Source: Candidatus Obscuribacter phosphatis (GTDB lineage Bacteria; Cyanobacteriota; Vampirovibrionia; Obscuribacterales; Obscuribacteraceae). From it: a stretch of DNA of 35,639 nt. The DNA lies in the NCBI GenBank assembly GCA_001899315.1, contig MOYA01000007.1, positions 1-35,639 of the forward strand. Direction: 5' to 3'. Shown here piece by piece: positions 11,220 to 31,595 of this stretch. Both the position numbers and the translations under genes were made by a program. The notes below the pieces were generated by a model. The model searched no databases and was not told where the DNA came from. It saw only the letters and a list, made by a program, of their open reading frames with translations. How positions within the stretch are numbered: position 1 is the first letter of the stretch; each line of letters opens with the position of its first letter.

Positions 11220-11227
11220 GAGAGACC

Positions 11228-12121: not shown

Positions 12122-12135
12122 AGAAGGGGGATCTA

Positions 12136-12858: not shown

Positions 12859-12864
12859 CACGCA

Positions 12865-12966
12865 ATGCTTCAAGACATAAGGTACGAGCTATCGAAATTC
12901 GATGCCGGGCTTGCAGAAATACTCCAAGTACAGCTGGCTGACAACAACGCTGGAGAAGAGCTATGA
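12865..12966 (+). CDS. Possible 33-residue peptide gene
   Basis: ATG at 12865 with GGAG nine bases upstream opens a 33-codon frame (MLQDIRYELSKFDAGLAEIL…). Its TGA overlaps the ATG of the hydrolase gene by 4 bases (ATGA). It fits the tight spacing of the operon and may serve to couple translation to the next gene. No homology is recognised, and it could be chance. Confidence 0.35.
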   Translation: MLQDIRYELSKFDAGLAEILQVQLADNNAGEEL

Positions 12967-13916: not shown

Positions 13917-13917
13917 A

Positions 13918-14622
13918 ATGGATTTGCTTTCACTTTGTGATACTTTCTTAATTCAATCACTTTCATGCAGTGAGGACGTCTACCTATCTTCAAGTAGATC
14001 GGCGCTGGCAAGATTGTTTTACCTTAGAACGCACTCGGTTAACCAACAGGCTGTTGAGCAGGTATTAGAGAGAGAAAGCCAAAACCGGCTAGTTCTTAGA
14101 ACAAGTAACCATATAGAAGCATTTTTCCTTACAGAGAGCGCGAGAGGCCTACAGCGCGCCCGTCTGGCTACGCCTGAGGATGTTTTTCTGCTAGGCGAGA
14201 GCGCTGCTCCCATACTGGCACATAGGCTTATCGCATTAGGTGGTACGCCGAGCTGCGGCACCGGGGTGGTTCGAGATAACAACTGTTTCACCGAGTTAAG
14301 AAACAGGATAACTGAGCTGACATCGCTCTACAAAGCGTATCGACAGGAAGGCTATTTTGAGCATGAAGCGCTGCTGTTCTCGATTAGGCAGATCGAAAGT
14401 GATATCCATATTGACTCAAAGTTGAATCGTTTAAGGCAATGCTGGAAGGATTCTCTTAAAGGCAAAAGGACGAAGCAGAGGCTTGAATCGGAAGATCTGC
14501 TGCTTGATGCAATAGTCTCCGCTATCAAGAAAAACACTAAGAAAATGGATTCTCGCTTGGCGCAGGAACATCTAGAAACCCTAATTTTGATGCTCCTAGC
14601 TCCAATAAAGAAGAGGGCTTAG
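13918..14622 (+). CDS. Hypothetical soluble protein
   Basis: A 234-residue mostly helical protein with no signal peptide or membrane span and no motif that I recognise. The N-terminal half contains SRSALARLFYLRTHSVNQQA and the C-terminal half is Lys/Arg-rich (DSLKGKRTKQRLESEDLLLD). The ATG lies 1 base after the stop of the hydrolase gene, which argues that it is real and co-translated. It is not related to any known cytochrome assembly factor that I can see. Confidence 0.6.
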   Translation: MDLLSLCDTFLIQSLSCSEDVYLSSSRSALARLFYLRTHSVNQQAVEQVLERESQNRLVLRTSNHIEAFFLTESARGLQRARLATPEDVFLLGESAAPILAHRLIALGGTPSCGTGVVRDNNCFTELRNRITELTSLYKAYRQEGYFEHEALLFSIRQIESDIHIDSKLNRLRQCWKDSLKGKRTKQRLESEDLLLDAIVSAIKKNTKKMDSRLAQEHLETLILMLLAPIKKRA

Positions 14623-14624
14623 GG

Positions 14625-14705
14625 ATGGCCAGCAGTGCACAGAAGTCCTGTATCCCCGCAGTTGGAGAAACTTTGAGCCAGTTCGCAGAACACGCTGAGG
14701 TGTAG
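14625..14705 (+). CDS. Possible 26-residue leader peptide before resB
   Basis: ATG at 14625, two bases after the previous stop, with AGAGGG upstream, opens a 26-codon frame (MASSAQKSCIPAVGETLSQF…) that ends two bases before the GTG of resB. The end of the frame carries the resB ribosome site (GAGGTG). It may only keep ribosomes moving through the gap; no homolog is recognised. Confidence 0.25.
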   Translation: MASSAQKSCIPAVGETLSQFAEHAEV

Positions 14706-14707
14706 CA

Positions 14708-16045
14708 GTGCGTCTTTCTCCCTTTGCCTCTGTGAAACTTACAATAATTTTGATGACGCTGATTGCTCTGTCTGTTCTAGTGGGGGCATGGTGTCCCCAA
14801 GAGCCGCAGGTGGGCTTCCAGAGAGTTGAAGAGGTATTCGGAACCGGCATGGCGGCGAGTCTTCGCCGGTTGGGCATCACCGATCTGTTTCACACTCCGT
14901 TCTTTCTTGGCCTAATCGGCATGATTACCTTGAATATGGTTGCCTGCAGCGTTCAACGCGTCTTTCCAAAAGCACGCTTGCTCAAAAAACAAATGGTGTT
15001 CCTGTCAGAACACGAGATTGGTAGGTTTCCGAATAGCCTAGATGTCAGGCTCAATTGCCCAGCAGTTGAAGCATTGGAGTCCCTTGGCTCGGAATTGAAA
15101 AAGCAGGGATTCCTGGTTGAGATCAAGGATGGAAAGCTAAAAGCAGAGCGGGCAAAACTTGCAATATTGGCTTCGACAGTTACACATATAGGGCTGCTGT
15201 CCCTGCTCGTGGGTGTGACCATCACATCATGGACAGGCTTTAGCGGATTCAAGCCCGTGGCGCCAGGAGGCTTTCTCAATTTCGATAATTCGGAGCACAG
15301 TAAGCTATGGATCGGAAGCCCGCCCCGTTGGAAAGTGCGCGTCGAATCAACACATAGAGAGGACTATGAAAACGGCGAAGCGAAACAGTGGTACAGCAAA
15401 CTTTCCGTTATCGGGACGAACGGTAAGGTTTTAAAACAACAAGAGATTTCGGTAAACACCCCACTTTCTTTCGACGGAGTAGATGTATATCAGTCGAGCT
15501 GGGGCCTGGATTCTATTGAAATTTCGGTCAACGGGCACACCTTGCATTTGCCCTTAAGGCAAATGGGTAATGCAAATGTTGCACTTATGCAGCTCGATAA
15601 ACAAACGACGCTTATCTTCTCGCTGAGAGGACAGGATAAACCGCTGCGGATATTTGCCAAAATTCCCGGATGGCAACAACCTAGAATGCTAACAGAGGTT
15701 CCACAGGGTGGCAAAGCAAGAATCGGAGAGGCTGCGCTCGGCTACATAAAGCCGATGCCGGTGACCGGGCTTCAATACAAAGCCGATCCGGGGTTGCCTA
15801 TTACCTACGCTGCTTTTGCAATTATCACGCTGGGCGTTGTAATGGCGGCAATTCCCTACCGCCAGGTCTGGGGGCAAGCTATCGATGGCTCTAGCGGGGT
15901 GTCACGATTGCATATTGCTGGTATCTCAAAGAAGTCCAGAACCACCTTTCAGCGCAATCTCGAGAAGATTCTCGCGAGGCTCAAAGCGAGGTTCGGCGAA
16001 CCAGCTGCCGGAGAATTGGAAGCGCGCCCAGCCGACAACACCTGA
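14708..16045 (+). CDS. resB: ResB/Ccs1-type cytochrome c biogenesis protein
   Basis: A 445-residue membrane protein of the System II heme-ligation complex, which with CcsA delivers heme to CxxCH sites outside the cytoplasmic membrane. Membrane spans: SVKLTIILMTLIALSVLVGA (~9-28), FFLGLIGMITLNMVACSVQR (~63-82), LAILASTVTHIGLLSLLVGV (~151-170) and a last one near ITYAAFAIITLGVVMAAIPY (~362-381), with a large extracytoplasmic domain between the third and fourth. It starts with GTG at 14708 behind GAGGTG. The pair with CcsA (16-base gap) and its position after two multiheme-site genes indicate a dedicated role in maturing the P460 proteins. Confidence 0.85.
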   Translation: MRLSPFASVKLTIILMTLIALSVLVGAWCPQEPQVGFQRVEEVFGTGMAASLRRLGITDLFHTPFFLGLIGMITLNMVACSVQRVFPKARLLKKQMVFLSEHEIGRFPNSLDVRLNCPAVEALESLGSELKKQGFLVEIKDGKLKAERAKLAILASTVTHIGLLSLLVGVTITSWTGFSGFKPVAPGGFLNFDNSEHSKLWIGSPPRWKVRVESTHREDYENGEAKQWYSKLSVIGTNGKVLKQQEISVNTPLSFDGVDVYQSSWGLDSIEISVNGHTLHLPLRQMGNANVALMQLDKQTTLIFSLRGQDKPLRIFAKIPGWQQPRMLTEVPQGGKARIGEAALGYIKPMPVTGLQYKADPGLPITYAAFAIITLGVVMAAIPYRQVWGQAIDGSSGVSRLHIAGISKKSRTTFQRNLEKILARLKARFGEPAAGELEARPADNT

Positions 16046-16061
16046 GTAATGGGGTAAAACA

Positions 16062-17054
16062 GTGTCAGAGTTTCAGACGGTACTAATAAATACAGCAGGG
16101 GTGCTATCCATAGTCTCCTTTTGGTTTTTTGTCGGATCAAACGCCCTACCCAAAAGGCAGGATTGGTTGATCAAAACCGGCAACATCATATTGTTTGTTG
16201 GCTTTGCTGCTCTAAGCTCAGCAATTATTGCGCGCGGAATCGAGTCCAATAGGTTCCCGCTTTCAAACTTGTATGAGTCACTACTCTGGTTTGCCTGGTC
16301 CGTAATTGGGGGCTATTTATTGATTTCTCGGTCATATGGGTTGAAGCAGCTAGGCTGGCTGGCGAGCATGACTGCTGCTACGTTTTTTCTGTATGGAAGC
16401 TGGCTACCAGCAGGGCAGCACGAGATCAAACCACTCGCCCCTGCACTTGTCAGCTACTGGCGCCAAATTCACGTCCCGCCACTAATAATGTCTTATGCGA
16501 TGTTTTTCATCGCCGGACTTTCAGCCTTCGTGCAATTGTGGAAAACAACGCGCTTACGTTCAATGCTTCTCGCGCTGGCTGCATTGGCTGCCGGAATCGC
16601 GGCGATTGCTCTGGGAACTTTCACGGATATGAACAGTTTTGTCTTGCAAGGTTTATTCGTAGGAGGTAGCTTGTCTGGACTTGCAGGTGCTTGGGTTAAT
16701 CTTCCTCAACAGTCCACGAAGAAGATCAACCAAGAGCACGCTGAGCTTTATGAAGAAGTAGTATACCGCTCAATCATGATCGGTTTCCCATTGCTAACCA
16801 TTGGTATCATCACTGGTGGCTTGTGGGCAAATCACTCCTGGGGTAGCTACTGGTCGTGGGATCCCAAAGAGTCGATGGCCCTAGCAACATGGGTTGGTTA
16901 TGCCGCTTACATTCACTTGCGCATTCACCATGAATGCTCAGCCGAAAAGTTATCGCTTGTTGCGGTCACAGGAATGCTTTTGACCATGCTGACTTACTTA
17001 GGTTTCAACTCCCTAGGATTTGGTGGCTTACACAGTTACGGACGATTCCGGTAA
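16062..17054 (+). CDS. ccsA: CcsA-type cytochrome c assembly protein (System II heme handling)
   Basis: A 330-residue protein with about eight membrane spans and the tryptophan-rich heme-handling signature WGSYWSWDPKES at about residues 260-271. Conserved His residues occur nearby (NHSWG, IHLRIHHE). CcsA holds heme for ligation together with ResB. GTG start at 16062 behind GGGGT. It is the last gene of the cargo; 22 bases after its stop the IS6-family element begins, so any native downstream gene or terminator has been lost. Confidence 0.9.
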   Translation: MSEFQTVLINTAGVLSIVSFWFFVGSNALPKRQDWLIKTGNIILFVGFAALSSAIIARGIESNRFPLSNLYESLLWFAWSVIGGYLLISRSYGLKQLGWLASMTAATFFLYGSWLPAGQHEIKPLAPALVSYWRQIHVPPLIMSYAMFFIAGLSAFVQLWKTTRLRSMLLALAALAAGIAAIALGTFTDMNSFVLQGLFVGGSLSGLAGAWVNLPQQSTKKINQEHAELYEEVVYRSIMIGFPLLTIGIITGGLWANHSWGSYWSWDPKESMALATWVGYAAYIHLRIHHECSAEKLSLVAVTGMLLTMLTYLGFNSLGFGGLHSYGRFR

Positions 17055-17933: not shown

Positions 17934-18698
17934 ATGAGCGACTTCAAATGGCGGCACTTTCAGGGCGAGATTATCCTCCAGTGTGTTCGCTGGTATTGCA
18001 AGTACGGCATCAGCTACAGAGATCTCGAAGAGATGATGGAAGAACGCGGCGTTGATGTCGACCACACTACCATTTACCGCTGGGTCCAGCACTACGCGCC
18101 GGAGATCGAAAAGCGTCTGCGCTGGCACTATCGTCCGTCCTACTCCACGTCTTGGCAGGTTGATGAAACCTACGTTAAGGTAAAAGGCGTATGGAAGTAC
18201 CTTTACCGGGCTATAGACAAACAAGGCCGAACCTTAGACTTCTACCTATCACACACTCGAAGTACTGCTATGGCAAAGCGGTTTCTCTGTAAGGCACTGA
18301 GAAAACAAAAGTCCTATGATAGGCCGGAAACGATCAACACAGATAAGAACCCCGCTTACGGGGCTGCTCTTAGAGAGATGAAAGATGAAGGGAAGTGTGA
18401 CGTTGATCTTAAACACCGACAGGTCAAGTATCTAAACAACAGGTTGGAAGCAGATCATGGCAAGCTAAAGCGGCTTTTAAAGCCAGTTCGTGGCTTCAAG
18501 TCTATGAAGACTGCTTATGCCACCATCAAAGGCTTTGAAGTCATGCGCATGTTTCGCAAGGGGCAAATGCACGCCTGGCAGCTGTTTCCAGGCATCAAGG
18601 GCGAAGTGTATCTAGTCGAAAAACAGTTCGGGCTAGATAGCCAAAATGCCTACGGTGAGTTTTGGAAATCGCTCATGGCTGAATTTGAGGCTGCATAA
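17934..18698 (+). CDS. tnpA: IS6-family DDE transposase
   Basis: A 254-residue transposase with the IS6 opening ([49 protein letters not shown]) and the DDE triad: Asp77 ([10 protein letters not shown]), Asp137 (INTDKNPAY) and Glu172 ([14 protein letters not shown]). Length is normal and no frameshift is seen, so it may be active. It shares the space between 17835 and 17933 with the divergent recombinase, which therefore holds both promoters. Confidence 0.92.
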
Positions 18699-18770
18699 TC
18701 AGAAAACAGAACGGGGAAACACGTCTCACAACTCGTCTCAACTTTTCCGGGCAGTATTTGCAACAGAGCC

Positions 18771-20220
18771 CTTTGAAGCGATGACCGGCAAAGCGATGAT
18801 AGTCTGTATGAGCCGTCGTATCGCTGTTGCTCTGTATGAAGAGCTGATCAAGTTGCGTCCAGGGTGGCATGAAGACGATGACGAGAAGGGGGCAATCAAG
18901 GTCGTCATGACCGGATCTGCTTCCGATCCGGCTGAGTGGCAAAAACATATTCGCAGCAAGTCGCGTCGAGAGTCCCTTGCCAATCGCTTCCGCGACGCAA
19001 AAGATCCGTTCAAGCTCGTGATTGTGCGTGATATGTGGCTGACTGGATTTGACGCGCCGTCCTTGCACACCATGTACATGGACAAGCCTATGCGCGGTCA
19101 TGGTTTGATGCAGGCGATTGCTCGGGCCAACCGTGTTTTCAAAGATAAGCCGGGTGGTTTGGTTGTCGATTATCTAGGCTTAGCACGCGAATTGAAAGAA
19201 GCCCTAGCGACTTACACAGAAAGTGGTGGCACTGGCCGTACCGCAATCAATCAGGATGAAGCCGTAGCCAAAATGCTGGAACGGTATGAGCAGTGCGTAG
19301 GGCTTCTGCACGGTTTTGATTGGTCCCTATGGACAACCGGCACGCCTCAACAGAAGCTGTCGCTGTTGCCGCCCGCACAAGAGCATATCCTTGCTCAAGA
19401 GCGCGGCAAAGAGCGCTTTGTAGGTGTCGTGCGCCATCTGTCGAAGCTGTTTGCTCTATCTGTACCGCACGACAAAGCTATGGAAATTCGCGATGATGTG
19501 TCGTTCTTCCAGGCACTGCAGGCTGTGCTCTCAAAGCGTTCTCCGGCTGATTCCCGCCCTGATGAAGACATCGACCAGGCGGTACAACAAATCATTTCAC
19601 GAGCAGTGGCACCCGAAGGGGTGATGGATATCTTCGCTGCGGCCGGGCTCAAGAAGCCAGATATCTCAATATTATCGGATGAATTTCTTTCTGAAGTAAA
19701 AGGCTTGCCGCAGAAGAATCTTGCTGTAGAACTGCTCAGAAAGCTGCTGACCGGCGAAATACGGACGCGAAGCCAACGGAACATCATTCAAGGGCGTTCT
19801 TTTTCTGAGATGCTGGAGAACGTTCTGCGGCGCTACCAGAACCGAGCTATAGAAGCAGCTCAAGTTATCGAAGAATTGATTACCCTCGCTAAAGAGATGA
19901 AAGCTGCGCGCCAACGTGGCGAGCAACTAGGATTGAACGAAGACGAGCTTGCCTTCTACGATGCACTTGAAACCAATGATAGTGCAGTGTCTGTCCTTGG
20001 CGATAACACGTTGCGAATTATCGCTCAGGAGCTGGTTAAGACTGTGCGTGCTAACGTTACCATTGATTGGACAATTCGTGAGAATGTCAGAGCCCAATTG
20101 CGCGTGCTGGTTAAACGAAGCTTGCGCAAGTACGGTTATCCGCCTGACAAGCAGGAGAAAGCCACCCAGACAGTACTTGAGCAGGCCGCTCTGCTATCTC
20201 ATGAATGGGCAGCAATCTAG
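18771..20220 (+). pseudogene. hsdR: Type I restriction enzyme HsdR, C-terminal remnant
   Basis: Open frame of about 483 codons starting at the element's right end with no own start codon. It begins in the second helicase domain of a type I R subunit ([20 protein letters not shown]), has motif V-like [20 protein letters not shown] and motif VI-like [11 protein letters not shown], then the helical C-terminal region. The nuclease domain, Walker A and DEAD-like motifs are missing, and no hsdM or hsdS lies on the plasmid. It is therefore a dead gene cut by the IS6-family element. Any longer reading frame starting inside the transposase gene at 18646 is an artefact of the fusion. Confidence 0.85.
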
Positions 20221-20250: not shown

Positions 20251-22509
20251 CTACCCCTGCACCTTGCCTCTGATCTTGACTTGCTGCTGTACGACAGGTT
20301 TTAGCTCTTCCAGCATGTACTCATAGCGATTGGCAATCCGGTCGTACAAATCGGACATCTTCTTCGCCGTGACAGTCACAACGAGAGCGTAGGGAATTTC
20401 CTTTGCATTGAGTGTAACGGCCCCGCCTTCGCGAGCGTTGTAGTGAATGTCAAAAACGGGGTCTTTGAGAGAGTCTCCCCTAAAGTTCTTCTGCGCTTTT
20501 ATGCTGGTTTCCCATTTGTGAGCATCTCTTCGTAGCTCTTCTTCGCTTTGATAAGCTTCACTTTTGCCAAAAAATGGCTTGGTGTCGGCGTGCTGCTGTT
20601 TAGGGTCGTTCCGCTTGTCGGCATGCGGGCGGAGCACGACTTCCAGCCCCGCCCTGGTGTAGTTGAGCGGATCTTTGGGATCCGTTTCGCTGGCGAAACA
20701 AAAGGTTGCCTTAATGGAAACTGTGCCGGGAATTGTTCCCTCTGGCAGCGGTATAGGGGCTCTTACGTACTTCCCGGGTTCTAGTCGACCCTGATAAACA
20801 ATCGAAGCGGTTCCGGCTTCACAGGTGATCAAATCATCAATATTTGGAGGAATCCTGCCCCAGCCGACCTCACGCATCTCGTGCGAGCCGTCCTCCGCAT
20901 GGTGAATGAGCAGTGCCTTAAGCGCCAGGGGCTGTATTGTCGCACCGAGGGTCGCTCTTATGCCAAGCGCTGTTCGTAAAGTCGAGGGAGAGGCAAAACT
21001 TGTGCCATATATCCCACTTGTAGCGCCATGACCCCCTTCGGCTACAACCCAGAATGGCTCCTTGTTTGTCCCGCCATAGGAAACAACGTCAGGCTTCACT
21101 CGTCCTGGGTTTCTCCCGGGCCCAACCGAGCTATAAGGAGCGCGTTTCCACGAGCTAGTCAGGCTGTCACATGCTCCAACGGACAGGACGTTTACGCCAT
21201 CCGACGGGGCTTGTATTCGGGCGTTTCCGCTTTCCCAATCTCGTTCGCCAGCATTGCCAGCGGCAACGCAAACTAATGTCTGTCCGTCAGAAAATAGCTG
21301 ATCAAGCCTAGCTGTCCAGACATGTACATCGTCATCTTCTATGGGAAGATCCGGGCCGATACTCAGATTGACGAACTCGTATTTTTTTTGTTGAAGCCTG
21401 TCAACGATTCGTTCAACAACGTCAAAATATTGTTCTTGCGGATCGTGCTTGGAATTAACATCCAAAACTCTGTAGTGATCAACGTTTGCGTAAGGCGCGG
21501 CTATCGACACTCCGTCTTCAATTGGGCCGAATAATAATGCCGACGTGACGCTTAATCCGTGTTGTTGAAATTCTGGGACCGCATCAGCAATACCCGGAGC
21601 CTTTTTTCTGTTTACCCAGGCGGTTAACGGATGGTCTTTGGGAATGCCGCCATCAAACACTGCAACACTCAGGCTGGGATCAACGGCTTTGCCTTTTGGT
21701 AGTTGAGCGGAAACCGAATTACCTTTCTTCGCCGATCCGGCTACTGGTCCTCGCAGTCGCGGCATTTCTCTGGCGACACGGAGAAATGAAAACTTGGCCA
21801 AATCTCTGTGTGCTTTTACCGGTACTCGCACGGGCAAAAAGCACAACCCGTTGACGTAGATCCGTTTGGATAGATCGGCCTCAGCGCCAAGTTCCTTCAT
21901 GTACTCTTCAAAGGATTCGACAATGTAGTCTGTCTCTGGGCTCGCATGTAAAACGACTTCCAGGAGTGGGCGGTCATCTTTGGAGCGCATTGGTTTAAGC
22001 CGCTCTTCCGGCGCTATCAGGCGTACGTCTTCTACTCTGATTAACTCATCGGCACCGCTCGTATTTTCGGTCCATGTTTTGATAACTTGCGCCCAACGTC
22101 TGAAGGATCTGCGCTTGCCAGCGATGTAGATTTCTGCTGATGGAGCCTCTAGCGGCATCCCGTCCTTGTCTTGCTTTTTCTTGGAAGTCGTCTTTTCTGG
22201 TTTAACCATTACCGCTCGACTGCCAATAGCTTCCAGTCCAACTTCACGAAGCAGTCCTGTAGGGAAATAGCTTTTGGCTAGGTAGGCCGGATGTAGTTTT
22301 AGAGCTGCTACTGTCTCGTCGTCTGGACAGCAGGATGAGGGCAGTTCGTCCAGCCCTTTAGATACTGCAGCTATCTTGGGTGCAAGCCGTTGCTGCGCAT
22401 CGGCGAATTGGTATGCATCTACTTTGCTTGGTTTTATCTTGGGTGGCGCAATTTTCTCTGTGAGTCTTTCGCCGTAACCAAGCAAGTAATTCCTTTTCCC
22501 TTCTGGCAT
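20251..22509 (-). CDS. ietS: Subtilisin-like serine protease of an AAA ATPase/protease pair (IetS-like)
   Basis: A 752-residue intracellular S8 protease (no signal peptide). The triad is intact: Asp286 (VAVFDGGIP), His317 (FQQHGLSVTSA) and Ser504 (YGTSFASPS), with oxyanion Asn419 (VAAGNAGE). A ~280-residue N-terminal domain and a ~230-residue C-terminal domain flank the catalytic core and would be used for partner or target recognition. It lies 15 bases after the AAA ATPase gene, same strand. A pair of this kind, IetAS, is described from an Agrobacterium Ti plasmid as a plasmid maintenance/incompatibility-type locus and was later reported as an antiphage system. I assign it by architecture and gene order; sequence identity to IetS was not measured. 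It is convergent with the hsdR remnant. Confidence 0.8.
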   Translation of the reverse strand: MPEGKRNYLLGYGERLTEKIAPPKIKPSKVDAYQFADAQQRLAPKIAAVSKGLDELPSSCCPDDETVAALKLHPAYLAKSYFPTGLLREVGLEAIGSRAVMVKPEKTTSKKKQDKDGMPLEAPSAEIYIAGKRRSFRRWAQVIKTWTENTSGADELIRVEDVRLIAPEERLKPMRSKDDRPLLEVVLHASPETDYIVESFEEYMKELGAEADLSKRIYVNGLCFLPVRVPVKAHRDLAKFSFLRVAREMPRLRGPVAGSAKKGNSVSAQLPKGKAVDPSLSVAVFDGGIPKDHPLTAWVNRKKAPGIADAVPEFQQHGLSVTSALLFGPIEDGVSIAAPYANVDHYRVLDVNSKHDPQEQYFDVVERIVDRLQQKKYEFVNLSIGPDLPIEDDDVHVWTARLDQLFSDGQTLVCVAAGNAGERDWESGNARIQAPSDGVNVLSVGACDSLTSSWKRAPYSSVGPGRNPGRVKPDVVSYGGTNKEPFWVVAEGGHGATSGIYGTSFASPSTLRTALGIRATLGATIQPLALKALLIHHAEDGSHEMREVGWGRIPPNIDDLITCEAGTASIVYQGRLEPGKYVRAPIPLPEGTIPGTVSIKATFCFASETDPKDPLNYTRAGLEVVLRPHADKRNDPKQQHADTKPFFGKSEAYQSEEELRRDAHKWETSIKAQKNFRGDSLKDPVFDIHYNAREGGAVTLNAKEIPYALVVTVTAKKMSDLYDRIANRYEYMLEELKPVVQQQVKIRGKVQG

Positions 22510-22524
22510 TCTAGCTTCCTCTCG

Positions 22525-23646
22525 TTATGACTTCTCGTTGGTGGCATGCTTGCGTATGGTGTCGCGGCTGACTCCAGTCCAGTCGTGAGCCTGTCGCTGG
22601 GAGAACCCGCTCAAGATCAGTTCTTCAGCAAGTCGAATACGGTCAGGCTTGTTCAAGTTTCTAGCGTGATCCAGAATCAACCCCTTCATTGTGTCTTTCA
22701 TTGGGACTCCGTGCACGATTGCGTTACGCCTAGCTCTAATAACCTCGCGCTCAATCTCGCTATAAGAGAGTCCTTTCAAAAGGCGAGTGAAAATATCCAG
22801 GTACATTGGTTCTGCCAAGCTCTCATCGAGAAGGCGCTGTATCACCTTGCCGGCCCCGGGTTCGTCCGGCATTGGAAATTCGATTATCATATCGAACCGG
22901 CGCCACACAGCTGGATCGAGAAGCTCTTTATGATTAGTCGCCGCCAGTAGCAAACCGTTGGCTGGCCAGTCATCAATCTCTTGCAGGAGCACTGTTACCA
23001 AGCGCTTCAGTTCTCCTACCTCAACCGCATCATCTCGTCGTTTCGCTATTGCATCAAATTCGTCGATCAATAGAACGCATTCGACAGTCTTTGCATAGTC
23101 TAGGACGCTTCGAACGTTTGTCCCTGTTTTCCCCAGGAAGCTACTCATTACTGCCGAAAGGTCGAGTGTTACAAGCGGCTTGTCTAATGCTTGTGCAGTC
23201 CATCTAGCGGCTAGTGTTTTGCCAACACCAGGTGGTCCTGTGAAGATGGCCGACCGTGTCGGCGTCAATCCTGCTATCGATAAATCATCTCTGTGGTTAC
23301 GCTCGTTGACTATCTGAAAAATCTTTTCGCTCACTTCGGGCGACCAAATAGGCTCCGCTGGTACTCTCACCGGGAATTCCGAGCGCGCTAAGAGCATTCG
23401 CGAATCGCTATCCACGGGTATCGGGTTTAGTGGTGTCTCGGTAGTTCCGCGTCGAAGCACAGAAGATTTGTCGGCCGCGGGCGCCTCTCTGATAAGGGAT
23501 CCTAGCTGTACTGAAAGCTCAGGAATAGCAGCTCGGTACTTGTTGGCTAGGCGCCTGACGAAAAGCTCTACGTCATCTTTCTTGCCCTGAAGAGCAAGTC
23601 GGGCAAGTTGGACTATTTCCTTTGCATCAACCTTAGTTTCGTCCAT
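22525..23646 (-). CDS. ietA: AAA ATPase of the ATPase/protease pair (IetA-like)
   Basis: A 373-residue AAA ATPase: Walker A GPPGVGKT (137-144), Walker B VLLIDEFD (191-198), sensor 1 Asn238 (ATNHKELLDP) and arginine finger region RRFD (249-252). The ~100-residue N-terminal part may bind substrate or partner. The C-terminus carries a helix-turn-helix-like segment (ILSGFSQRQAHDWTGVSRDT, about residues 344-363). Promoter candidate on the minus strand: TTGCAA, then TATAGG after 16 bases, and ribosome site GGAAGGG. Expected role is to sense or unfold a target and pass it to, or activate, the S8 protease encoded next. Confidence 0.8.
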   Translation of the reverse strand: MDETKVDAKEIVQLARLALQGKKDDVELFVRRLANKYRAAIPELSVQLGSLIREAPAADKSSVLRRGTTETPLNPIPVDSDSRMLLARSEFPVRVPAEPIWSPEVSEKIFQIVNERNHRDDLSIAGLTPTRSAIFTGPPGVGKTLAARWTAQALDKPLVTLDLSAVMSSFLGKTGTNVRSVLDYAKTVECVLLIDEFDAIAKRRDDAVEVGELKRLVTVLLQEIDDWPANGLLLAATNHKELLDPAVWRRFDMIIEFPMPDEPGAGKVIQRLLDESLAEPMYLDIFTRLLKGLSYSEIEREVIRARRNAIVHGVPMKDTMKGLILDHARNLNKPDRIRLAEELILSGFSQRQAHDWTGVSRDTIRKHATNEKS

Positions 23647-23694
23647 TCGGTTTTAAAACCCTTCCTATATAATGAATGTTGTCGGTTGCAAACG

Positions 23695-23728
23695 GGACTA
23701 TTTTGTGTTTCAATCTAGATTATAGTCC
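23695..23728. promoter_or_regulatory. Inverted-repeat operator between the ATPase/protease pair and the Ubl operon
   Basis: GGACTAT (23695-23701) and ATAGTCC (23722-23728) are exact inverted repeats 20 bases apart, and the 10-bp palindrome AATCTAGATT (23712-23721) lies between them. They sit in the only spacer (23647-23761) shared by the two divergent operons, so one regulator could control both. Confidence 0.45.
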
Positions 23729-23761
23729 ACTTGGCTCAATTCCGAAAGGGGGAGATAACAA

Positions 23762-23902
23762 ATGTCAAGCAAGAAAGCTACTCCAAAGACAGTGAAAGTT
23801 GCCCGGGATGCTGGCACCGGACAATTTGTCACCAAAACGTATGCCGCCGCCCACAAGAAAACTACTGTTGTAGAGACCGTTCGCCGAAATACAAAAAAGT
23901 AA
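23762..23902 (+). CDS. 46-residue basic protein heading the Ubl operon
   Basis: ATG 23762 follows a strong ribosome site (GGGGGAG, 6 bases upstream). The 46-residue product is Lys/Arg-rich and contains ARDAGTGQFVTKTYAAAH and TTVVETVRR. The pattern R-D/S-A-x-T-G-x-[FY]-V-T-x…TTV-x-E is one I recognise from short conserved hypothetical proteins in many Proteobacteria. Function is unknown. The next gene (Ubl) starts 86 bases later on the same strand. Codon pattern and ribosome site make it a real gene; its link with ubiquitin-like conjugation is only positional. Confidence 0.65.
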   Translation: MSSKKATPKTVKVARDAGTGQFVTKTYAAAHKKTTVVETVRRNTKK

Positions 23903-23988
23903 ATAAGCGCCGAACTGTCTTGAAAACTCAGTTTTCACGATTGTCTTTATGACTTGTCCTAATACTAAGCTCGAATAGGAGATTGGAA

Positions 23989-24243
23989 ATGCAAGATACA
24001 GCAACCCATAGCACGCATCCAGAGCCGGAAATGGTCCATATAACCATCAACCGCAAACGCTACAACATACCGCAAGGATCTCTCGCGGTCTCTTCGCTAA
24101 AAGACTGGGCGGAGATTTGTGCGGCAGATGAGGTCGAGCAAGTGATTGATGGCAAGCTCGAACCGCTCCAGGACAACGCCACGGTGCAGATCAAGGGCGG
24201 GGAAAAGTTCATCTCTCACCCTCGCGATGGAGGCTCGTCATAA
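23989..24243 (+). CDS. Ubiquitin-like protein, multiubiquitin family, single domain
   Basis: An 84-residue protein with one beta-grasp domain of the multiubiquitin type: VHITINRKRYNIPQGSLAVS, LKDWAEICAADEVEQVIDG, and KGGEKFISHPRDGG near the end. The chain ends Gly-Gly-Ser-Ser, so the conjugatable diglycine is covered by two residues that a JAB peptidase could remove. ATG 23989 is preferred (AGGAG nine bases upstream) over TTG 23983. The E2 gene starts directly at the next base after the stop. Expected role: the tag attached to targets by the E1 and E2 that follow. Confidence 0.85.
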   Translation: MQDTATHSTHPEPEMVHITINRKRYNIPQGSLAVSSLKDWAEICAADEVEQVIDGKLEPLQDNATVQIKGGEKFISHPRDGGSS

Positions 24244-24597
24244 ATGGAATTCTCTCAAGAACAAATTGACGAGCTTCTCTCCATCTATCCTGGCGCTAGG
24301 CAGATGGAGGAAGGCGGTACGCCGTACTTCCTCCTCCCTGACGTTGCCCTTCCCGGTGGCGCCAGCCCAGAGAAGGTGGACCTGCTCCTTCGACCCGTCC
24401 ACATGGATGGCTACCACTCTCGGCTCTATTACCCCCAGCAGCCAACATTCTCTAGCCGTACATGCACGGAAGCTCTTAACTGGAATGCAGTCAATGTGCA
24501 TATACTGGCTCGCAATTGGTTCGCATTCTCTTGGAGAACGCTACCAGGGCTGACCCTTGTCCAAATGATTGCCATGCACTTGAGGGCGTTACGATGA
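24244..24597 (+). CDS. Prokaryotic E2-like conjugating protein (Prok-E2 family E type)
   Basis: A 117-residue protein matching the layout of prokaryotic E2 family E: KVDLLLRPVHMDGYHSRLYY, NWNAVNVHILARNWFAFSWR, LPGLTLVQMIAMHLRAL. It has a single cysteine, Cys74 (SRTCTEALNWN), the only candidate for a thioester with the Ubl. Starts at the base after the Ubl stop and overlaps the JAB-E1 gene by 4 bases (ATGA), so the three are one translation unit. The fold assignment is by pattern; Cys74 as the active residue is inferred and other members of this family may use another residue. Confidence 0.75.
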   Translation: MEFSQEQIDELLSIYPGARQMEEGGTPYFLLPDVALPGGASPEKVDLLLRPVHMDGYHSRLYYPQQPTFSSRTCTEALNWNAVNVHILARNWFAFSWRTLPGLTLVQMIAMHLRALR

Positions 24598-25901
24598 AAA
24601 AAGTCCAGCTTAAAATCCCGCGCCAACTCTACAGTCTAATGCTTGCTGATTTAGCAAGGCCTCATCCATACGCATATGAGCGAATAGGCTTTTGCCGCGT
24701 CAGGCTTGGAAATCGCGGCGGCACAACCGAACTGCTTCTGGTCGCCGATTACTGGCCAGTAGAAGACGATCAATATATTCCCGATGAATTTTCAGGTGCG
24801 CGCATAAACAACCTGGCGATAAGGACTGCCCTGCAAACCTCGATCTCGTCCGACGAAGGTATCTTTCATGTTCACATGCATGACTTTCCCGGGATCCCGA
24901 GATTCAGTCGCATGGACCTCGAAGAGATTCCGCGCATCATTGAAAGCCTGACCCACGCTAATCCTGCTATGCCCCACGGTATGCTTGTTCTGGGACATGA
25001 AGAGGCTGCTGCTAAAGCCATCATGCCTGGTGGCACGCTTCAGTCCGTGGACCGTATAACTGTAGTTGGGCAACCTACCCGAGTCATTAGTGGCTTGCCA
25101 AAGTTCAATGGCGGTGAGCGCTTTAGCAGGCAGGGCTTTCTGGGAGCGCTCGCTCCTCAACAAATCCACTCGCTACGTATCGGTATCATTGGTCTTAGCG
25201 GTGGCGGCTCCCATGTAGTCCAACAGCTAAGCCACCTTGGATTCTCAGACTTTGTCTTGTTCGATCACCAAGCAATCGACATCTACAACTTGAACAGGCT
25301 CGTAGGGGCAACCGAGGAAGATGTAGCTCAAGGGCGCATGAAGATACAGATAGCCGATCGCGTCATAGCAAGCATCAACAGCCAGGCTAGAACAATGCCG
25401 GTTCCGGCTCGTTGGCAAGAAAACGTCGATGCTCTAAGGAGTTGCGACATTGTGGTTGGCTGCATCGATGGCTTTGATGAACGCCGGCAGCTTGAGGCTG
25501 CCTGTCGAAGATACCTTATACCGCTGGTCGATGTCGGCATGGATGTGGTCCAGCTGCCCAGTCAGACCCCGCGTATGGCCGGACAGGTCATCCTGTCCAT
25601 GCCTGGCTATCCTTGCTTCCACTGCATCGGCTTCCTGAACGAGCGAACCCTGGCTGCCGAAGCGCAAAGGTACGGAGATGCTGGCCCCAATCCTCAAGTC
25701 GTCTGGCCAAACGGCGTGCTCGCTTCAACTGCCGTAGGAATTGTTGTCGATCTCGCGACGGGCTGGAAAAGAACTTCTCCAGGACTAATTTATAAGAGCT
25801 ACGATGGAAACATCGACACGCTCACAGATCATCCTCGGTTGGAGCATGTGTTCGGTATGAAGTGCCAACATTTCAAGTTTGAAAGCCTGGGCGATCCCTA
25901 A
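24594..25901 (+). CDS. JAB deubiquitinase-like domain fused to an E1 (ThiF) activating enzyme
   Basis: A 435-residue fusion. The N-terminal ~160 residues are a JAB/JAMM metalloprotease: Glu29 candidate, then HVHMHDFPGIPRFSRMD with His92, His94, His96, Ser105 and Asp108. The rest is an E1-like ThiF domain: GERFSRQGFLGAL, nucleotide-binding IGIIGLSGGGSHVVQQLSHL (196-215), Asp224 (VLFDHQAIDIYNLNRLVG), VGCIDGFDERR, and a Cys pair YPCFHC (339-344) that may bind zinc or include the acceptor Cys. It would adenylate the Ubl and remove the Ser-Ser tail or reverse conjugation. It overlaps the E2 gene by 4 bases and the convergent regulator gene by 4 bases. Confidence 0.88.
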   Translation: MKKVQLKIPRQLYSLMLADLARPHPYAYERIGFCRVRLGNRGGTTELLLVADYWPVEDDQYIPDEFSGARINNLAIRTALQTSISSDEGIFHVHMHDFPGIPRFSRMDLEEIPRIIESLTHANPAMPHGMLVLGHEEAAAKAIMPGGTLQSVDRITVVGQPTRVISGLPKFNGGERFSRQGFLGALAPQQIHSLRIGIIGLSGGGSHVVQQLSHLGFSDFVLFDHQAIDIYNLNRLVGATEEDVAQGRMKIQIADRVIASINSQARTMPVPARWQENVDALRSCDIVVGCIDGFDERRQLEAACRRYLIPLVDVGMDVVQLPSQTPRMAGQVILSMPGYPCFHCIGFLNERTLAAEAQRYGDAGPNPQVVWPNGVLASTAVGIVVDLATGWKRTSPGLIYKSYDGNIDTLTDHPRLEHVFGMKCQHFKFESLGDP

Positions 25902-27583: not shown

Positions 27584-29404
27584 GTGCCGACTATCAACGG
27601 ACTGGCTCAAGCGCGCTTAGCATCAGCTACCGCGCCGACTAGATTTGATCGACTGCAGTACTTCCCGAAAGGGTGGGAGACTTGCGTCGCCCAGTTTCTT
27701 GAGCTGTTCCACCGCTTTGGTTACATCTACAAACCTCTCTCTGGTGGCTCCTGGTACTCGGCTAACGAGAGCTGGAAGCTGCCTGATTCGGAGATATTAA
27801 AGGCCATTGCCTGCGCCCATCCTAAGTTCTATATCGGCTGTCGTGCCGGGAAAACAAGCCGGTTTGCAGTCCTAGATATTGACCAGAACAGTCGCTATCA
27901 CAACAAGCAGTCACTTGAGAAGTTGCTACAGTGCTTGTCTCAAGCGGGTCTTTCTCGATCTTCACTTTATCGCTCAAGTTACAGTGGTGGTTGGCATTTA
28001 TACCTTTTCTTCGAGGAACCCATTGCCAGTCTCGAACTTAGGCGGCAATTATTCAAACTCCTTACATTGAATGACTTCCAGGTCGCAAAAGGACAGCTCG
28101 AGATTTTCCCTCATCCAGGCAGCCAAGGCTCTATGGGCTTGGGGCTGAGGTTGCCGATGCAGCCTGGTTTTGCCTGGCTTGATAAAAAGACTTTGGAGAT
28201 AGAGCATGAGCGAAATGAGCTTGATGCTACCTATGCGCTCGAATTATTTCTCGACGTACTAGACGGCGACGCTAATTCCTTTGAGGATTTCCGGAGGCTC
28301 AAGGCGCACGTCCAGGAGCTGGAGCAACGCAAGGCTTCCGCTTCCGTCCACGGTCGCGGTGACCGCGTCAACAACGTCGTGCCTATACGTGCTGCCCTGA
28401 AGGCCGTTCCGGAGTCTGAATTTTCCGATTTTGTTCGAGGGGTGTTCCACCGACTGCCGCCAGGCATCATCGTAGAGAACTGGTACAAAGGACGGCTGTA
28501 TCATCTCAACGGCTTGAATGGTCCATCCCAGCGCGCTGAAGCTATTGAATGTGTCGGCCATTATTTCTTCTACGGCGACCCGAGCCGCGACCTGCCAGCT
28601 TTGGGATATGGATACGAACAAGAGCGCCAATGGGCCATCGACGAGTTCTTACACACCAGAAACAATGGGCAAAGTGAAGACATTAACCGTGGCCGGGCTG
28701 ATGCTTACGCCCAGGTAGAGCGAGCTGCTAGTTGGCGTCCAGCACACAAGCAGTCTACCGAACCGGTTAAGTACGCCCCCGAGCGCCCCATCTCCTGGAT
28801 AAGGGAGAACGCCAATCGCAAGACCGACGCACGTAAGCGCATATCAGACGCCCTCGACGGGCTCAAGAAAATGCAGCGCTCCTTCACCACCGTGGAGTTG
28901 CAGAAGGCCGCCGGGTGCTCCAGGGAGACTCTATATAACCACGCTGATATCTGGCGTCAGGACTATGAGGACCTTGCTGAAGGGTTCTTTGCAATCTGTA
29001 CGGACGAGTATAACGATGTGGTGGGGGCGGGTTCTACTCAAACCCAGCCCCCTACCATTCCTTCTAATTCGGATATGCCGCCGGGTCGCTTGGCAGCTCG
29101 CCGGATTATCTATGAGATATCCATGCGATCGCAAAGAGAGCAGCGCCAGGCAGAGAAAACCGCTCATGCCACCCAGAAGGCTTCTGAATCATCTTGGTTG
29201 GCAGAAGTAACCAGTCTTACCAAGAACGATCCTTCGACCCTTTCCGTTGAGGAAATCAAAGTACTCCTGGTCATTTTGTTGGGGTATCTAGCCCTGGCTC
29301 CTGACTATGACAGTCAGAACACATTGCAGATTTATATATCCGCCCTGAAAGAACAGCTGTCCTCTGTCCTAAATGGTCCGCAGCTGGTGGTTCGTCCGCC
29401 CTAA
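27584..29404 (+). CDS. Replication protein with primase-like (AEP) N-terminal domain
   Basis: A 606-residue protein. The N-terminal ~230 residues look like an archaeo-eukaryotic-type primase: Asp-x-Asp in FAVLDIDQNSR (97-100) and the SGGWHLYLFF segment (134-143) containing the second-motif His, followed by GQLEIFPHPGSQG. A central region of unclear fold follows, then a helix-turn-helix-like stretch (TTVELQKAAGCSRETLYNHA, about residues 435-454) and a charged C-terminus. Start GTG 27584 is the first in-frame start; no strong ribosome site is visible, which could mean low expression, as usual for Rep. Context next to iteron-like repeats supports the replication initiator role. Exact Rep family is not recognised. 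Confidence 0.65.
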   Translation: MPTINGLAQARLASATAPTRFDRLQYFPKGWETCVAQFLELFHRFGYIYKPLSGGSWYSANESWKLPDSEILKAIACAHPKFYIGCRAGKTSRFAVLDIDQNSRYHNKQSLEKLLQCLSQAGLSRSSLYRSSYSGGWHLYLFFEEPIASLELRRQLFKLLTLNDFQVAKGQLEIFPHPGSQGSMGLGLRLPMQPGFAWLDKKTLEIEHERNELDATYALELFLDVLDGDANSFEDFRRLKAHVQELEQRKASASVHGRGDRVNNVVPIRAALKAVPESEFSDFVRGVFHRLPPGIIVENWYKGRLYHLNGLNGPSQRAEAIECVGHYFFYGDPSRDLPALGYGYEQERQWAIDEFLHTRNNGQSEDINRGRADAYAQVERAASWRPAHKQSTEPVKYAPERPISWIRENANRKTDARKRISDALDGLKKMQRSFTTVELQKAAGCSRETLYNHADIWRQDYEDLAEGFFAICTDEYNDVVGAGSTQTQPPTIPSNSDMPPGRLAARRIIYEISMRSQREQRQAEKTAHATQKASESSWLAEVTSLTKNDPSTLSVEEIKVLLVILLGYLALAPDYDSQNTLQIYISALKEQLSSVLNGPQLVVRPP

Positions 29405-29704: not shown

Positions 29705-29793
29705 CCGGCTGAGCGCCCACTACCGTCAAGCCGTTTTGTTTCCTTTTGTCCTTCTAGTTAGCGCCTCCCGCCTTGACGGCAGAGCCCAGCCGG
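29705..29793. repeat. Nested inverted repeats A, upstream of the Gp88-like gene
   Basis: Outer stem CCGGCTG (29705-29711) / CAGCCGG (29787-29793); inner stem CCGTCAAG (29723-29730) / CTTGACGG (29772-29779) with a 41-base loop. The inner motif returns in two later elements (30728-30783 and 32722-32776). A smaller hairpin (CCTCCGGGAGG, 29799-29809) follows before the ribosome site of the next gene. Confidence 0.55.
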
Positions 29794-29844
29794 TCGCCCT
29801 CCGGGAGGCAGCGTCGCTGCCCTATCAACCAGAAGGAGGGCAAT

Positions 29845-30654
29845 ATGGTAAGTGCTCGCGCGCACGATTACGGTCTGGAGTTGACTCAAAATAGTAAGGT
29901 GGGATGGGCTTTTAGCCTATCTCGTACTGAATCCTGTACCTATGCAACGGAAATTTGTAAGCGGCTTTGTTATGGAAATGGTGTCCGGTATCAGTCCGCA
30001 GCTCAGCGTCACAAGCGGCTTCGCAATTACATCACCTGTGAGTTTCTCTTACGTAATGGTGGACCGGAGCTACTGGCTCAGAATCTTGTTGCCTTAGTGG
30101 ATCAGGCACGGCCGGTCGATTGGCTGGCTGCGCAGATATCAGGCGAGGCAACTAACTTGCCATACACGCTGCGCATCCATGACGTGGGAGACTACTTCTC
30201 ATGCGATTATGCGGCTGCATGGTTGATGGCAATCAAGCAACGTCCTCAGTGCAAGTTCTGGTTTTATACTCGCAGCTTCCTTGAGCCGAAGCTTCTTTCG
30301 GTACTCTCGGAGCTTGCGTCTCAGTCCAATTGCCAGGGATTTTTGAGCATTGATAACGATAACTTTGAGCAGGGATTGCTTGCCTTTTCTTCCTGTCCAG
30401 GTGTCTGGAAGCTGGCTCTCATGCAGGTTGAAGAGGAGAAGTTGCCGCTTAACTTACTTCCGTCCGTTCGCAAAATGGTTAGTCCTGGGCAAATCATCAA
30501 CTTCCCGTATCATCGAGCCGGTAAGCATGTCCAGCCTCTCAAGGCTGAGCCATTGACCAACTGTCCGCAAATAACTACCTCTGCTTATCCACTGCAAACT
30601 AATCGATCTGAGCTTAAGCCATGTCAGTCTTGCAGTTTGTGTTTACCTGGGTAA
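29845..30654 (+). CDS. Gp88-like protein (phage/plasmid Gene product 88 family)
   Basis: A 269-residue Cys-rich protein resembling the Gp88 family of phages and plasmids: NSKVGWAFSLSRTESCTYAT, EICKRLCYGNGVRYQ near the start, LRIHDVGDYFSCDYAAAWL in the middle, KFWFYTRSFLEPKLL, and a C-terminal Cys cluster (CQSCSLCLPG). The Cys groups could bind a metal or an iron-sulfur cluster. Biochemical function of the family is unknown to me. ATG 29845 is chosen because AAGGAGGG lies 5 bases upstream; the frame stays open further upstream to 29773 but without such a site. A terminator hairpin follows the stop. Confidence 0.6.
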   Translation: MVSARAHDYGLELTQNSKVGWAFSLSRTESCTYATEICKRLCYGNGVRYQSAAQRHKRLRNYITCEFLLRNGGPELLAQNLVALVDQARPVDWLAAQISGEATNLPYTLRIHDVGDYFSCDYAAAWLMAIKQRPQCKFWFYTRSFLEPKLLSVLSELASQSNCQGFLSIDNDNFEQGLLAFSSCPGVWKLALMQVEEEKLPLNLLPSVRKMVSPGQIINFPYHRAGKHVQPLKAEPLTNCPQITTSAYPLQTNRSELKPCQSCSLCLPG

Positions 30655-31078: not shown

Positions 31079-31112
31079 GCCGGTATGAGCCTTTGTGCCA
31101 TTCCGGCTTTTT
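31079..31112 (+). terminator. Rho-independent terminator after the RHH gene
   Basis: Stem GCCGGTATG (31079-31087) pairs with CATTCCGGC (31099-31107) apart from one mismatch, followed by a T run (31108-31112). It lies 25 bases after the RHH stop and just before the ribosome site of the next gene. Confidence 0.65.
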
Positions 31113-31127
31113 CATCAGGAGCTGAAA

Positions 31128-31595
31128 ATGAATACACGTGCACTCAAGAAACATCTCAAGTACAAGATTCCGCAAATAAAGCTCGCAATATTGCGGGAGC
31201 CGTCAGGCGAGCCCCTGCCTGCGATTCGCACGCCTTGCGACCTGGAGCAATACCTGGAGCCAATGAAACATCTATCTGAAGAACACTTCGTAGCTCTACA
31301 CCTTAATGCAAGAAATCAGGTGACCGGCTACCACGTCGTAAGTCACGGAACCATCTCTGCAAGCCTTGTTCATCCACGAGAGGTCTTTAAAGCTGCCATC
31401 TTGAGTAATGCTTATTGCATTGTGGTTGCTCACAACCATCCTGCTGGATCGACCGACCCGAGCCCGGAAGACCTGGATACCACCAGGCAATTGTTGTCCG
31501 CCGGCAAGCTTCTTGGAATTGAGATCCTAGACCACTTGATCGTCTCTTATCGAGGTGTGACAAGCATTAGGGAATCTCATCCGCACTTATTTTGA
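31128..31595 (+). CDS. RadC-type JAB domain protein
   Basis: A 155-residue protein of the plasmid RadC/DUF2466 class. It has the JAMM metal site AHNHPAGSTDPSPEDLD with His102, His104 and Asp115, and a candidate Glu in HLSEEHFVALHLN. It lacks the helix-hairpin-helix domain of chromosomal RadC, as is common on plasmids. ATG 31128 is preferred because AGGAG lies 8 bases upstream. The role of these proteins is unresolved; it need not be related to the Ubl operon's JAB domain, which is of a different subfamily. A GC hairpin follows the stop. Confidence 0.8.
   Translation: MNTRALKKHLKYKIPQIKLAILREPSGEPLPAIRTPCDLEQYLEPMKHLSEEHFVALHLNARNQVTGYHVVSHGTISASLVHPREVFKAAILSNAYCIVVAHNHPAGSTDPSPEDLDTTRQLLSAGKLLGIEILDHLIVSYRGVTSIRESHPHLF

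What the first reader, a model, noticed from the sequence alone, without database searches (positions are those of the whole stretch)
20251..25901. Ubiquitin-like conjugation operon back-to-back with an AAA ATPase/subtilisin pair
Seen: Ubl, E2 and JAB-E1 genes on plus, and AAA ATPase plus S8 protease on minus, start from one 115-bp spacer. Known: both types occur as separate bacterial defence modules (Bil/Bub-type Ubl systems; IetAS). Inference: together they contain tag, ligation machinery, tag-removing enzyme, unfoldase and protease, the parts list of a ubiquitin-proteasome pathway. The protease could act on Ubl-tagged phage or plasmid proteins, or the two may only be neighbours in a defence island.
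Basis: partly seen in the sequence, partly recalled or inferred. Interest (0 to 1): 0.88.

Follow-up and report, generated by a model that had tools for sequence, protein, structure and literature searches.

The report
Ubiquitin-like operon paired with AAA protease
A mobile element in a non-photosynthetic cyanobacterial relative carries a bacterial ubiquitin-like tagging operon back-to-back with an ATP-driven protease pair, and the same two modules turn up side by side in several unrelated bacteria more often than chance predicts, which hints that the tags may steer or control the protease, although no direct contact has been shown.

Summary
The five genes are real. Minus strand: IetA (AAA ATPase) and IetS (subtilisin, triad intact), the two parts of IetAS defence. 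Plus strand: Ubl, a cysteine-less E2-like protein, and a fused JAB-E1. The plus operon is a divergent relative of Bub pathways (E1 matches BubCD; the E2 model matches BubB) and of Iyer 2006 operon type 6e. The "115-bp spacer" holds only if an unconserved 46-aa ORF counts; the Ubl starts 342 bp from IetA. Neither E1 nor E2 has a conserved catalytic cysteine, so "ligation machinery" is too strong.

The pairing is not confined to this plasmid. IetAS adjoins or lies near Ubl operons in five phyla, in different gene orders, with three Ubl-operon subtypes, on at least five branches of the IetA tree. But both modules mostly occur alone: 0 of 78 IetAS loci from random genomes have a Ubl neighbour, and the nearest Melainabacterial Ubl operons lack IetAS.

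Verdict: an occasional but recurrent composite of two known systems, probably functionally coupled. Whether IetAS destroys Ubl-tagged proteins, or is itself regulated by the Ubl, is unresolved.

The parts
20251..22509 (-). IetS: S8 subtilisin-like protease, 752 aa; catalytic D286, H317, S504 invariant in 31-40 homologues; beta-alpha-beta-beta-alpha-beta segment (182-248) before the catalytic domain, prodomain-like
   Evidence: PADLOC IetS 2.5e-49; Pfam S8 5.7e-25; alignment; AlphaFold pLDDT 87.5 and PDB fold matches to pro-subtilisins
22525..23646 (-). IetA: AAA ATPase, 373 aa, Walker A GPPGVGKT, Walker B LLIDEFDAI; C-terminal helix-turn-helix-like tail
   Evidence: PADLOC IetA 5.8e-84; Pfam AAA 1.9e-29 and weak HTH_23; closest solved AAA domains p97/Cdc48
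23647..23988 (.). Divergent intergenic region between the IetA and Ubl starts (342 bp)
   Evidence: no promoter or terminator consensus found
23762..23902 (+). 46-aa ORF of unknown status inside the spacer; no homologue in fetched loci
23989..24243 (+). Ubl, 84 aa, single beta-grasp-type domain, C-terminus ...RDGGSS (family signature G-x-S-S)
   Evidence: profile of Ubl relatives 2e-31; C-termini
24244..24597 (+). E2-like (BubB-like) protein, 117 aa, no conserved cysteine; invariant Y57, W80, W92, S96, L113
   Evidence: profile 2e-40; cysteine count; invariant columns; AlphaFold pLDDT 94.4; best PDB fold match Citrobacter BubB, TM 0.70
24594..25901 (+). JAB-E1 fusion (BubCD-like), ATG overlaps the E2-like stop; JAMM H95/H97/S106/D109; adenylation residues D225, R236, K251, D293; CxxC...CxH (342, 345, 425, 427); numbering of P0005
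   Evidence: ThiF 5.2e-28; BubCD 2.3e-17; conservation over 91 homologues; JAMM
18646..20220 (+). Defence-island context: 3' part of a type I restriction HsdR gene, cut by an IS6-family element (17934-18698)
   Evidence: T1RH-like_C 1.4e-134, IS6 transposase 3.7e-83

Best explanation
A composite mobile defence locus in which a Bub-like ubiquitin-like (Ubl) modification operon is functionally coupled to an IetAS AAA-subtilase. Proposed steps: the JAB domain trims the Ubl tail (probably after the conserved Gly of G-x-S-S) and/or removes the Ubl from targets [inferred]; the E1 domain adenylates the Ubl, and the Cys-less E2-like protein acts as a binding or scaffold subunit, not a thioester carrier [inferred from missing cysteines and the BubB match]; the Ubl mark then controls what, or when, IetA unfolds and IetS cleaves [inferred]. 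Of the two versions I rank 'the Ubl marks targets that IetAS degrades' slightly above 'the Ubl is put on IetA or IetS to license or restrain it' (listed separately as a rival). Shown: gene identities, motif conservation, recurrent linkage. Not shown: conjugation, contact, degradation, phage phenotype.
For: Recurrent linkage in independent lineages and orders: Ubl-E2-JAB-E1-IetA-IetS on one strand in Methylovirgula, Bradyrhizobium, Ancylobacter and Hyphomicrobiaceae; IetA-IetS-Ubl-E2-JAB/E1 in Bacteroidota (L050); convergent in Acidobacteriota (L107) and in Rhizobiaceae with true Bub-type E1; IetA-IetS-Ubl::E2-E1 in Runella and IetA-S8-Ubl-E1-DUF6527 in an acidobacterium; IetA-IetS-(3 genes)-Ubl-E2-E1 in Mycolicibacterium. 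The IetA tree needs at least 5 changes of the 'Ubl neighbour' label. S8/IetA is the third commonest neighbour family of type-A E1 loci, after HTH/ImmA-IrrE and an exonuclease. 6 of 30 IetA copies in E1-bearing genomes adjoin a Ubl operon, against about 1 of 122 AbiEii copies (Fisher 2e-4). Plasmid-wide: 6 of 27 IetS records hold a Ubl operon nearby, 0.08 expected.
Against: 0 of 78 IetAS loci from 934 random genomes have a Ubl operon nearby. The closest Melainabacterial Ubl operons (E1 67-73% identical) have no IetAS, and the closest IetA relatives (52-54%) have no Ubl, so the pairing here looks recent. No residue set is special to Ubl-linked IetA or IetS including the window's. A 50-fold defence-island effect would lift the enrichment P to 0.055. 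IetAS also sits beside caspase modules. Nothing shows that this Ubl can be conjugated.
Confidence: 0.32

Rival explanations
1. Neighbours only: two independent defence modules collected in a defence island on mobile elements, with no shared substrate or regulation.
For: The window has a defence-island context (HsdR remnant and IS6 element next to IetS). Both modules are usually found alone. Orientation and distance vary. Melainabacterial Ubl operons lack IetAS. AbiEii toxins are also found near E1 loci (5 loci within 9 kb), and the within-9-kb contrast with IetA is not significant (P 0.076).
Against: IetAS is rare (about 0.02 per Mb), yet it is the third commonest neighbour family and nearly always the immediate neighbour, in one-strand operons in several phyla and with three Ubl subtypes. 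AbiEii, several times commoner, is almost never immediately adjacent (Fisher 2e-4).
Confidence: 0.38
2. The Ubl operon regulates IetAS itself: Ubl attachment to IetA or IetS (or to its prodomain-like segment) holds it inactive or licenses it, as Cap2/Cap3 do for CD-NTases in CBASS; IetAS then cleaves its own, Ubl-independent substrates.
For: The Ubl set has no E3 and no canonical E2 cysteine, so a short target list is plausible. IetS has a prodomain-like segment that could be a control point. IetAS works as a stand-alone family, so it should not need Ubl for substrate choice.
Against: No lysine or other signature separates Ubl-linked from unlinked IetA and IetS. Direct evidence is absent.
Confidence: 0.22
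3. The Ubl does not modify proteins covalently in these loci; Ubl, E2-like and E1 form a sensor or assembly that only signals, and IetAS is its effector.
For: No conserved catalytic Cys in E1 or E2-like. In the Rhizobiaceae and Runella versions the Ubl is fused to the E2-like domain, so its C-terminus is not free.
Against: Adenylation residues and JAMM residues are conserved, which argues for activation and cleavage of a C-terminus; the Ubl tail G-x-S-S is conserved.
Confidence: 0.08

Closest known systems
Bub pathway (Citrobacter BubCD-BubB structures 9ea4, 9ea5, 9ea8, 9eae, 9eav)
   Same: JAB-E1 in one chain (BubCD, 2.3e-17); E2-like protein with the BubB fold (TM 0.70); small operon on mobile elements
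   Different: Only about 66 bits to BubCD, whereas the Rhizobiaceae IetAS-linked E1 reaches 2.6e-80; E2-like not detectable from BubB by sequence; single short Ubl ending GGSS; no DUF6527 gene next to it
Iyer et al. 2006 operon type 6e (polyUbl, inactive E2/RWD, JAB-E1), PMC1779556
   Same: Gene set and order; E2-like domain without the catalytic cysteine; spread on mobile elements
   Different: The 2006 description lists a metal-binding partner and usually 2-3 Ubl domains; here one Ubl domain and an IetAS neighbour, which the searched text of that paper does not mention for this operon
IetAS anti-phage system
   Same: IetA and IetS homology, gene order, intact catalytic residues
   Different: Well below NCBIfam equivalog cut-offs (241 against 510 bits; 125 against 900); linked to a Ubl operon, which most IetAS loci are not
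Type II CBASS Cap2/Cap3 and BilABCD
   Same: Ubl-type activating enzyme plus JAB peptidase used in defence (general knowledge; a CBASS paper, PMC10097602, was listed but not read)
   Different: No CD-NTase here; E2-like partner lacks a conserved cysteine; coupled instead to an AAA-subtilase
Ubiquitin-proteasome and archaeal SAMP-proteasome
   Same: Tag, activating enzyme, tag-removing JAB, AAA ATPase related to p97/PAN and protease in one locus
   Different: No conserved E1 or E2 catalytic cysteine; protease is a subtilisin, not a proteasome; no evidence of tag-dependent degradation

Membership tests
IetAS | AAA ATPase gene of the IetA family | tested here: met
   PADLOC IetA 5.8e-84 over residues 9-372
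IetAS | Adjacent IetS-family S8 protease with intact triad | tested here: met
   PADLOC IetS 2.5e-49; D286/H317/S504 invariant; 15-bp gap on the same strand
IetAS | NCBIfam equivalog score (IteA, IteS) | tested here: not met
   241.4 < 510 and 124.7 < 900 bits: not an equivalog of the tested proteins, a divergent member of the wider family
IetAS | Phage or plasmid restriction phenotype | not testable with these tools
   needs plating experiments
Bub / type 6e Ubl operon | Ubl - E2-like - JAB/E1 gene order | tested here: met
   same order in about 80 loci
Bub / type 6e Ubl operon | E2-like protein of BubB fold without catalytic Cys | tested here: met
   fold match TM 0.70, prob 1.00, though E 6.9e-3; no conserved Cys in 81 sequences
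Bub / type 6e Ubl operon | JAB-E1 homologous to BubCD | tested here: met
   2.3e-17, residues 87-324
Bub / type 6e Ubl operon | Metal-binding (DUF6527-type) protein, listed for 6e | tested here: inconclusive
   No such gene next to the window operon; present in the Runella and acidobacterial subtypes; not specifically searched for in other type-A loci
Bub / type 6e Ubl operon | Covalent Ubl modification of targets | not testable with these tools
   needs biochemistry
Ubiquitin-proteasome-like pathway (works like) | E1 and E2 catalytic cysteines | tested here: not met
   only CxxC...CxH universally conserved in the E1; none conserved in the E2-like
Ubiquitin-proteasome-like pathway (works like) | Tag-removing JAMM peptidase | tested here: met
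   motif present in 80 of 84 JAB domains including the window's
Ubiquitin-proteasome-like pathway (works like) | Tag recognised by the ATPase or protease | not testable with these tools
   complex prediction not available; no linked-only signature residues

The most novel reading that the evidence does not exclude
A bacterial ubiquitin-like pathway that works without E1/E2 thioester cysteines and feeds tagged phage or plasmid proteins to a non-proteasomal AAA-subtilisin machine: a convergent, mobile 'ubiquitin-protease' immune system.
Probability: 0.22. Interest if true: 0.92.

Novelty: new variant of a known kind. Interest (0 to 1): 0.64.

Why it matters
The cellular role of Bub-type operons and the trigger of IetAS are both unclear as far as I could find. 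A recurrent physical link between them gives each a candidate partner and a simple test, and it would be a second evolutionary route, besides the proteasome, by which a ubiquitin-like tag is tied to an AAA-driven protease. If the link is only ecological, it still shows that Ubl operons and IetAS share mobile defence islands across five phyla.

Tried and rejected
Near-identical plasmid copies: none in PLSDB. Viral contigs: only two IetAS loci, neither with Ubl. Promoter and terminator search in the spacer: nothing above chance. The 46-aa ORF as a conserved operon member: rejected, no homologue in fetched loci. Obligate two-module pathway: rejected, both modules occur alone in most loci. Residues special to Ubl-linked IetA or IetS: the linked set is mostly two related alphaproteobacterial clades, and the sharpest position (IetS 550, R against W) is not shared by the window; no convincing signature. 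The AAA protein near L103 was set aside: 704 aa, 5 kb away, no S8 partner. L302 has only a distant ThiF 4 kb away and was not counted. Class-wide count of type-A E1 in Alphaproteobacteria gave no further genome (0 of 384). Literature searches found no report of the IetAS-Ubl link, but preprints and most subscription papers are not held, so absence there is weak.
Full report
Where it is. The window is on contig C7 of a 5.5-Mb genome. The nearest named relatives of its Ubl operon are Candidatus Obscuribacter and other Melainabacteria. The window carries conjugation, KfrA, integrase and IS genes, so it is from a plasmid or integrated mobile element. The finding lies in a small defence island that also holds the 3' part of an HsdR gene cut by an IS6-family element.

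What the genes are: IetAS. The minus-strand pair is IetA-IetS: PADLOC IetA 5.8e-84 and IetS 2.5e-49, with the subtilisin triad D286/H317/S504 invariant in alignments of 31-40 relatives. Both fall below the NCBIfam equivalog cut-offs, so this is a divergent IetAS. The IetS model (pLDDT 87.5) has a beta-alpha-beta-beta-alpha-beta segment at 182-248 directly before the catalytic domain and matches pro-subtilisins best; calling it a prodomain is my inference. IetA's AAA domain is closest to p97/Cdc48 and PAN-type ATPases and ends in a helix-turn-helix-like tail that most close relatives share.

What the genes are: the Ubl operon. The plus-strand operon is Ubl, E2-like and JAB-E1, with the E1 start overlapping the E2-like stop. 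Single-protein searches of the Ubl and E2-like gave no family, but about 80 loci with the same order were recovered through the E1. The E1 matches Citrobacter BubCD at 2.3e-17. The E2-like model (pLDDT 94.4) has one good match in the PDB, Citrobacter BubB (TM 0.70, probability 1.00, E 6.9e-3). This is the operon type that Iyer et al. (2006, PMC1779556) listed as 6e, with an E2/RWD-like domain lacking the catalytic cysteine. In 81 E2-like sequences no cysteine is conserved, and nine have none at all. In 91 E1 sequences the only universally conserved cysteines are a CxxC...CxH set that looks metal-binding. Adenylation residues and the JAMM motif are conserved. The Ubl ends in G-x-S-S in most loci; trimming by the JAB after that Gly is my inference.

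Is the pairing more than a single lineage? From 80 genome loci plus plasmid loci, clustering neighbours gave HTH/ImmA-IrrE regulators (49 loci), an exonuclease (11), then S8 protease and IetA (7 each). The linked loci show different layouts: Ubl-E2-JAB-E1-IetA-IetS on one strand (Methylovirgula, Bradyrhizobium, Ancylobacter, Hyphomicrobiaceae); IetA-IetS-Ubl-E2-JAB/E1 (Bacteroidota, L050) and convergent in an acidobacterium (L107); convergent with a true Bub-type E1 (2.6e-80 to BubCD) in three Rhizobiaceae plasmids; IetA-IetS then Ubl::E2 and E1 in Runella (L165); IetA-S8 then Multi_ubiq, DUF6791-ThiF and DUF6527 in another acidobacterium (L171); and IetA-IetS, three genes, then Ubl-E2-E1 on a Mycolicibacterium plasmid. 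The window adds a divergent layout. On an IetA tree the linked copies need at least five changes of the label.

Is it more than island clustering? IetA-like genes have a density of about 0.02 per Mb in 934 random genomes (genome sizes taken as averages). Near 80 E1 loci 0.028 are expected and 4 were seen (P 2.6e-8); allowing 10-, 20- and 50-fold island enrichment the P values are 2e-4, 0.003 and 0.055. In genomes that hold the E1, 6 of 30 IetA copies adjoin a Ubl operon, while AbiEii, about four times as common, does so in about 1 of 122 (the 122 is scaled from 61 in 40 genomes; Fisher 2e-4). By the weaker measure of lying within 9 kb of the type-A E1 the contrast is not significant (P 0.076). 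In the plasmid collection 6 of 27 IetS records have a Ubl operon within about 6 kb, against 0.08 expected, or 0.58 if only some 10,000 large plasmids are eligible; three of the six are close kin. So linkage beyond chance is well supported, and linkage beyond generic island clustering is supported but not beyond dispute.

What speaks against a fixed pathway. None of 78 IetAS loci from random genomes has a Ubl operon nearby, nor do three from random Alphaproteobacteria or two from viral contigs. The closest Melainabacterial Ubl operons have no IetAS, and the closest IetA relatives have no Ubl. IetAS also sits divergent from caspase modules in two plasmids. The combination is therefore optional and, in this lineage, probably recent.

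Mechanism. I put the odds of a functional link of some kind at about 0.6: the Ubl mark decides what IetAS cleaves (0.32), the Ubl acts on IetAS itself (0.22), or a non-covalent Ubl assembly signals to IetAS (0.08). The chance that the two are only neighbours is put at 0.38. The missing cysteines mean the transfer chemistry cannot be the classical thioester relay. No contact, conjugate or phenotype was tested; the structure tool accepted single chains only.

Novelty. Each half is a member of a known kind. The recurrent combination, with three Ubl-operon subtypes, is something I did not find described in the papers held here; I rate it a new variant of a known kind.

Noticed in passing
L005:8165-10585 (G000:C1 about 1218165-1220585): A second Ubl-E2-JAB-E1 operon on the main chromosome of the same genome, with a two-domain Ubl and split JAB and E1 genes, without IetAS.
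   Followed up: partly
E1 loci such as L025:3510-4806, L027:3945-4786: An HTH regulator plus ImmA/IrrE metallopeptidase lies upstream of the Ubl operon in 49 of about 84 loci, resembling protease-controlled repressors of other immune operons; it is missing in the window, where IetAS occupies that side.
   Followed up: partly
L123:3638-7131 and L124:3616-7104: IetAS divergently next to a caspase-family protein module in Komagataeibacter and Agrobacterium plasmids: a second possible partner of IetAS.
   Followed up: no
window 23989-24243 and about 80 Ubl relatives: Ubl C-terminus is almost always G-x-S-S with a variable x; the SS tail seems too conserved for a throw-away peptide and has no explanation here.
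   Followed up: partly
L117:11061-11813, L165:5167-5901: In the IetAS-linked Bub-type operons the Ubl is fused to the E2-like domain (Multi_ubiq + Prok-E2_E), so the Ubl C-terminus is not free.
   Followed up: partly
window 22525-22620 (IetA C-terminus): Helix-turn-helix-like tail (SQRxAHxxTGVSRDTIR) shared by most close IetA relatives, suggesting DNA binding or autoregulation.
   Followed up: no
window 29773-30654; L038, L039, L040: GP88-like gene downstream of the Ubl operon in the window and in three other Melainabacterial loci, suggesting a shared mobile element.
   Followed up: no
window 27584-29404: Protein with a primase domain of the TOTE conflict-system type (exactly at the Pfam cut-off).
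   Followed up: no
window 10527-17054: Cargo cluster with two cytochrome P460 genes, a hydrolase and ResB/cytochrome c assembly genes.
   Followed up: no
window 31095-31595: RadC-like JAMM-family protein near the Ubl operon; relatives also lie near E1 in L050, L053 and L061.
   Followed up: no
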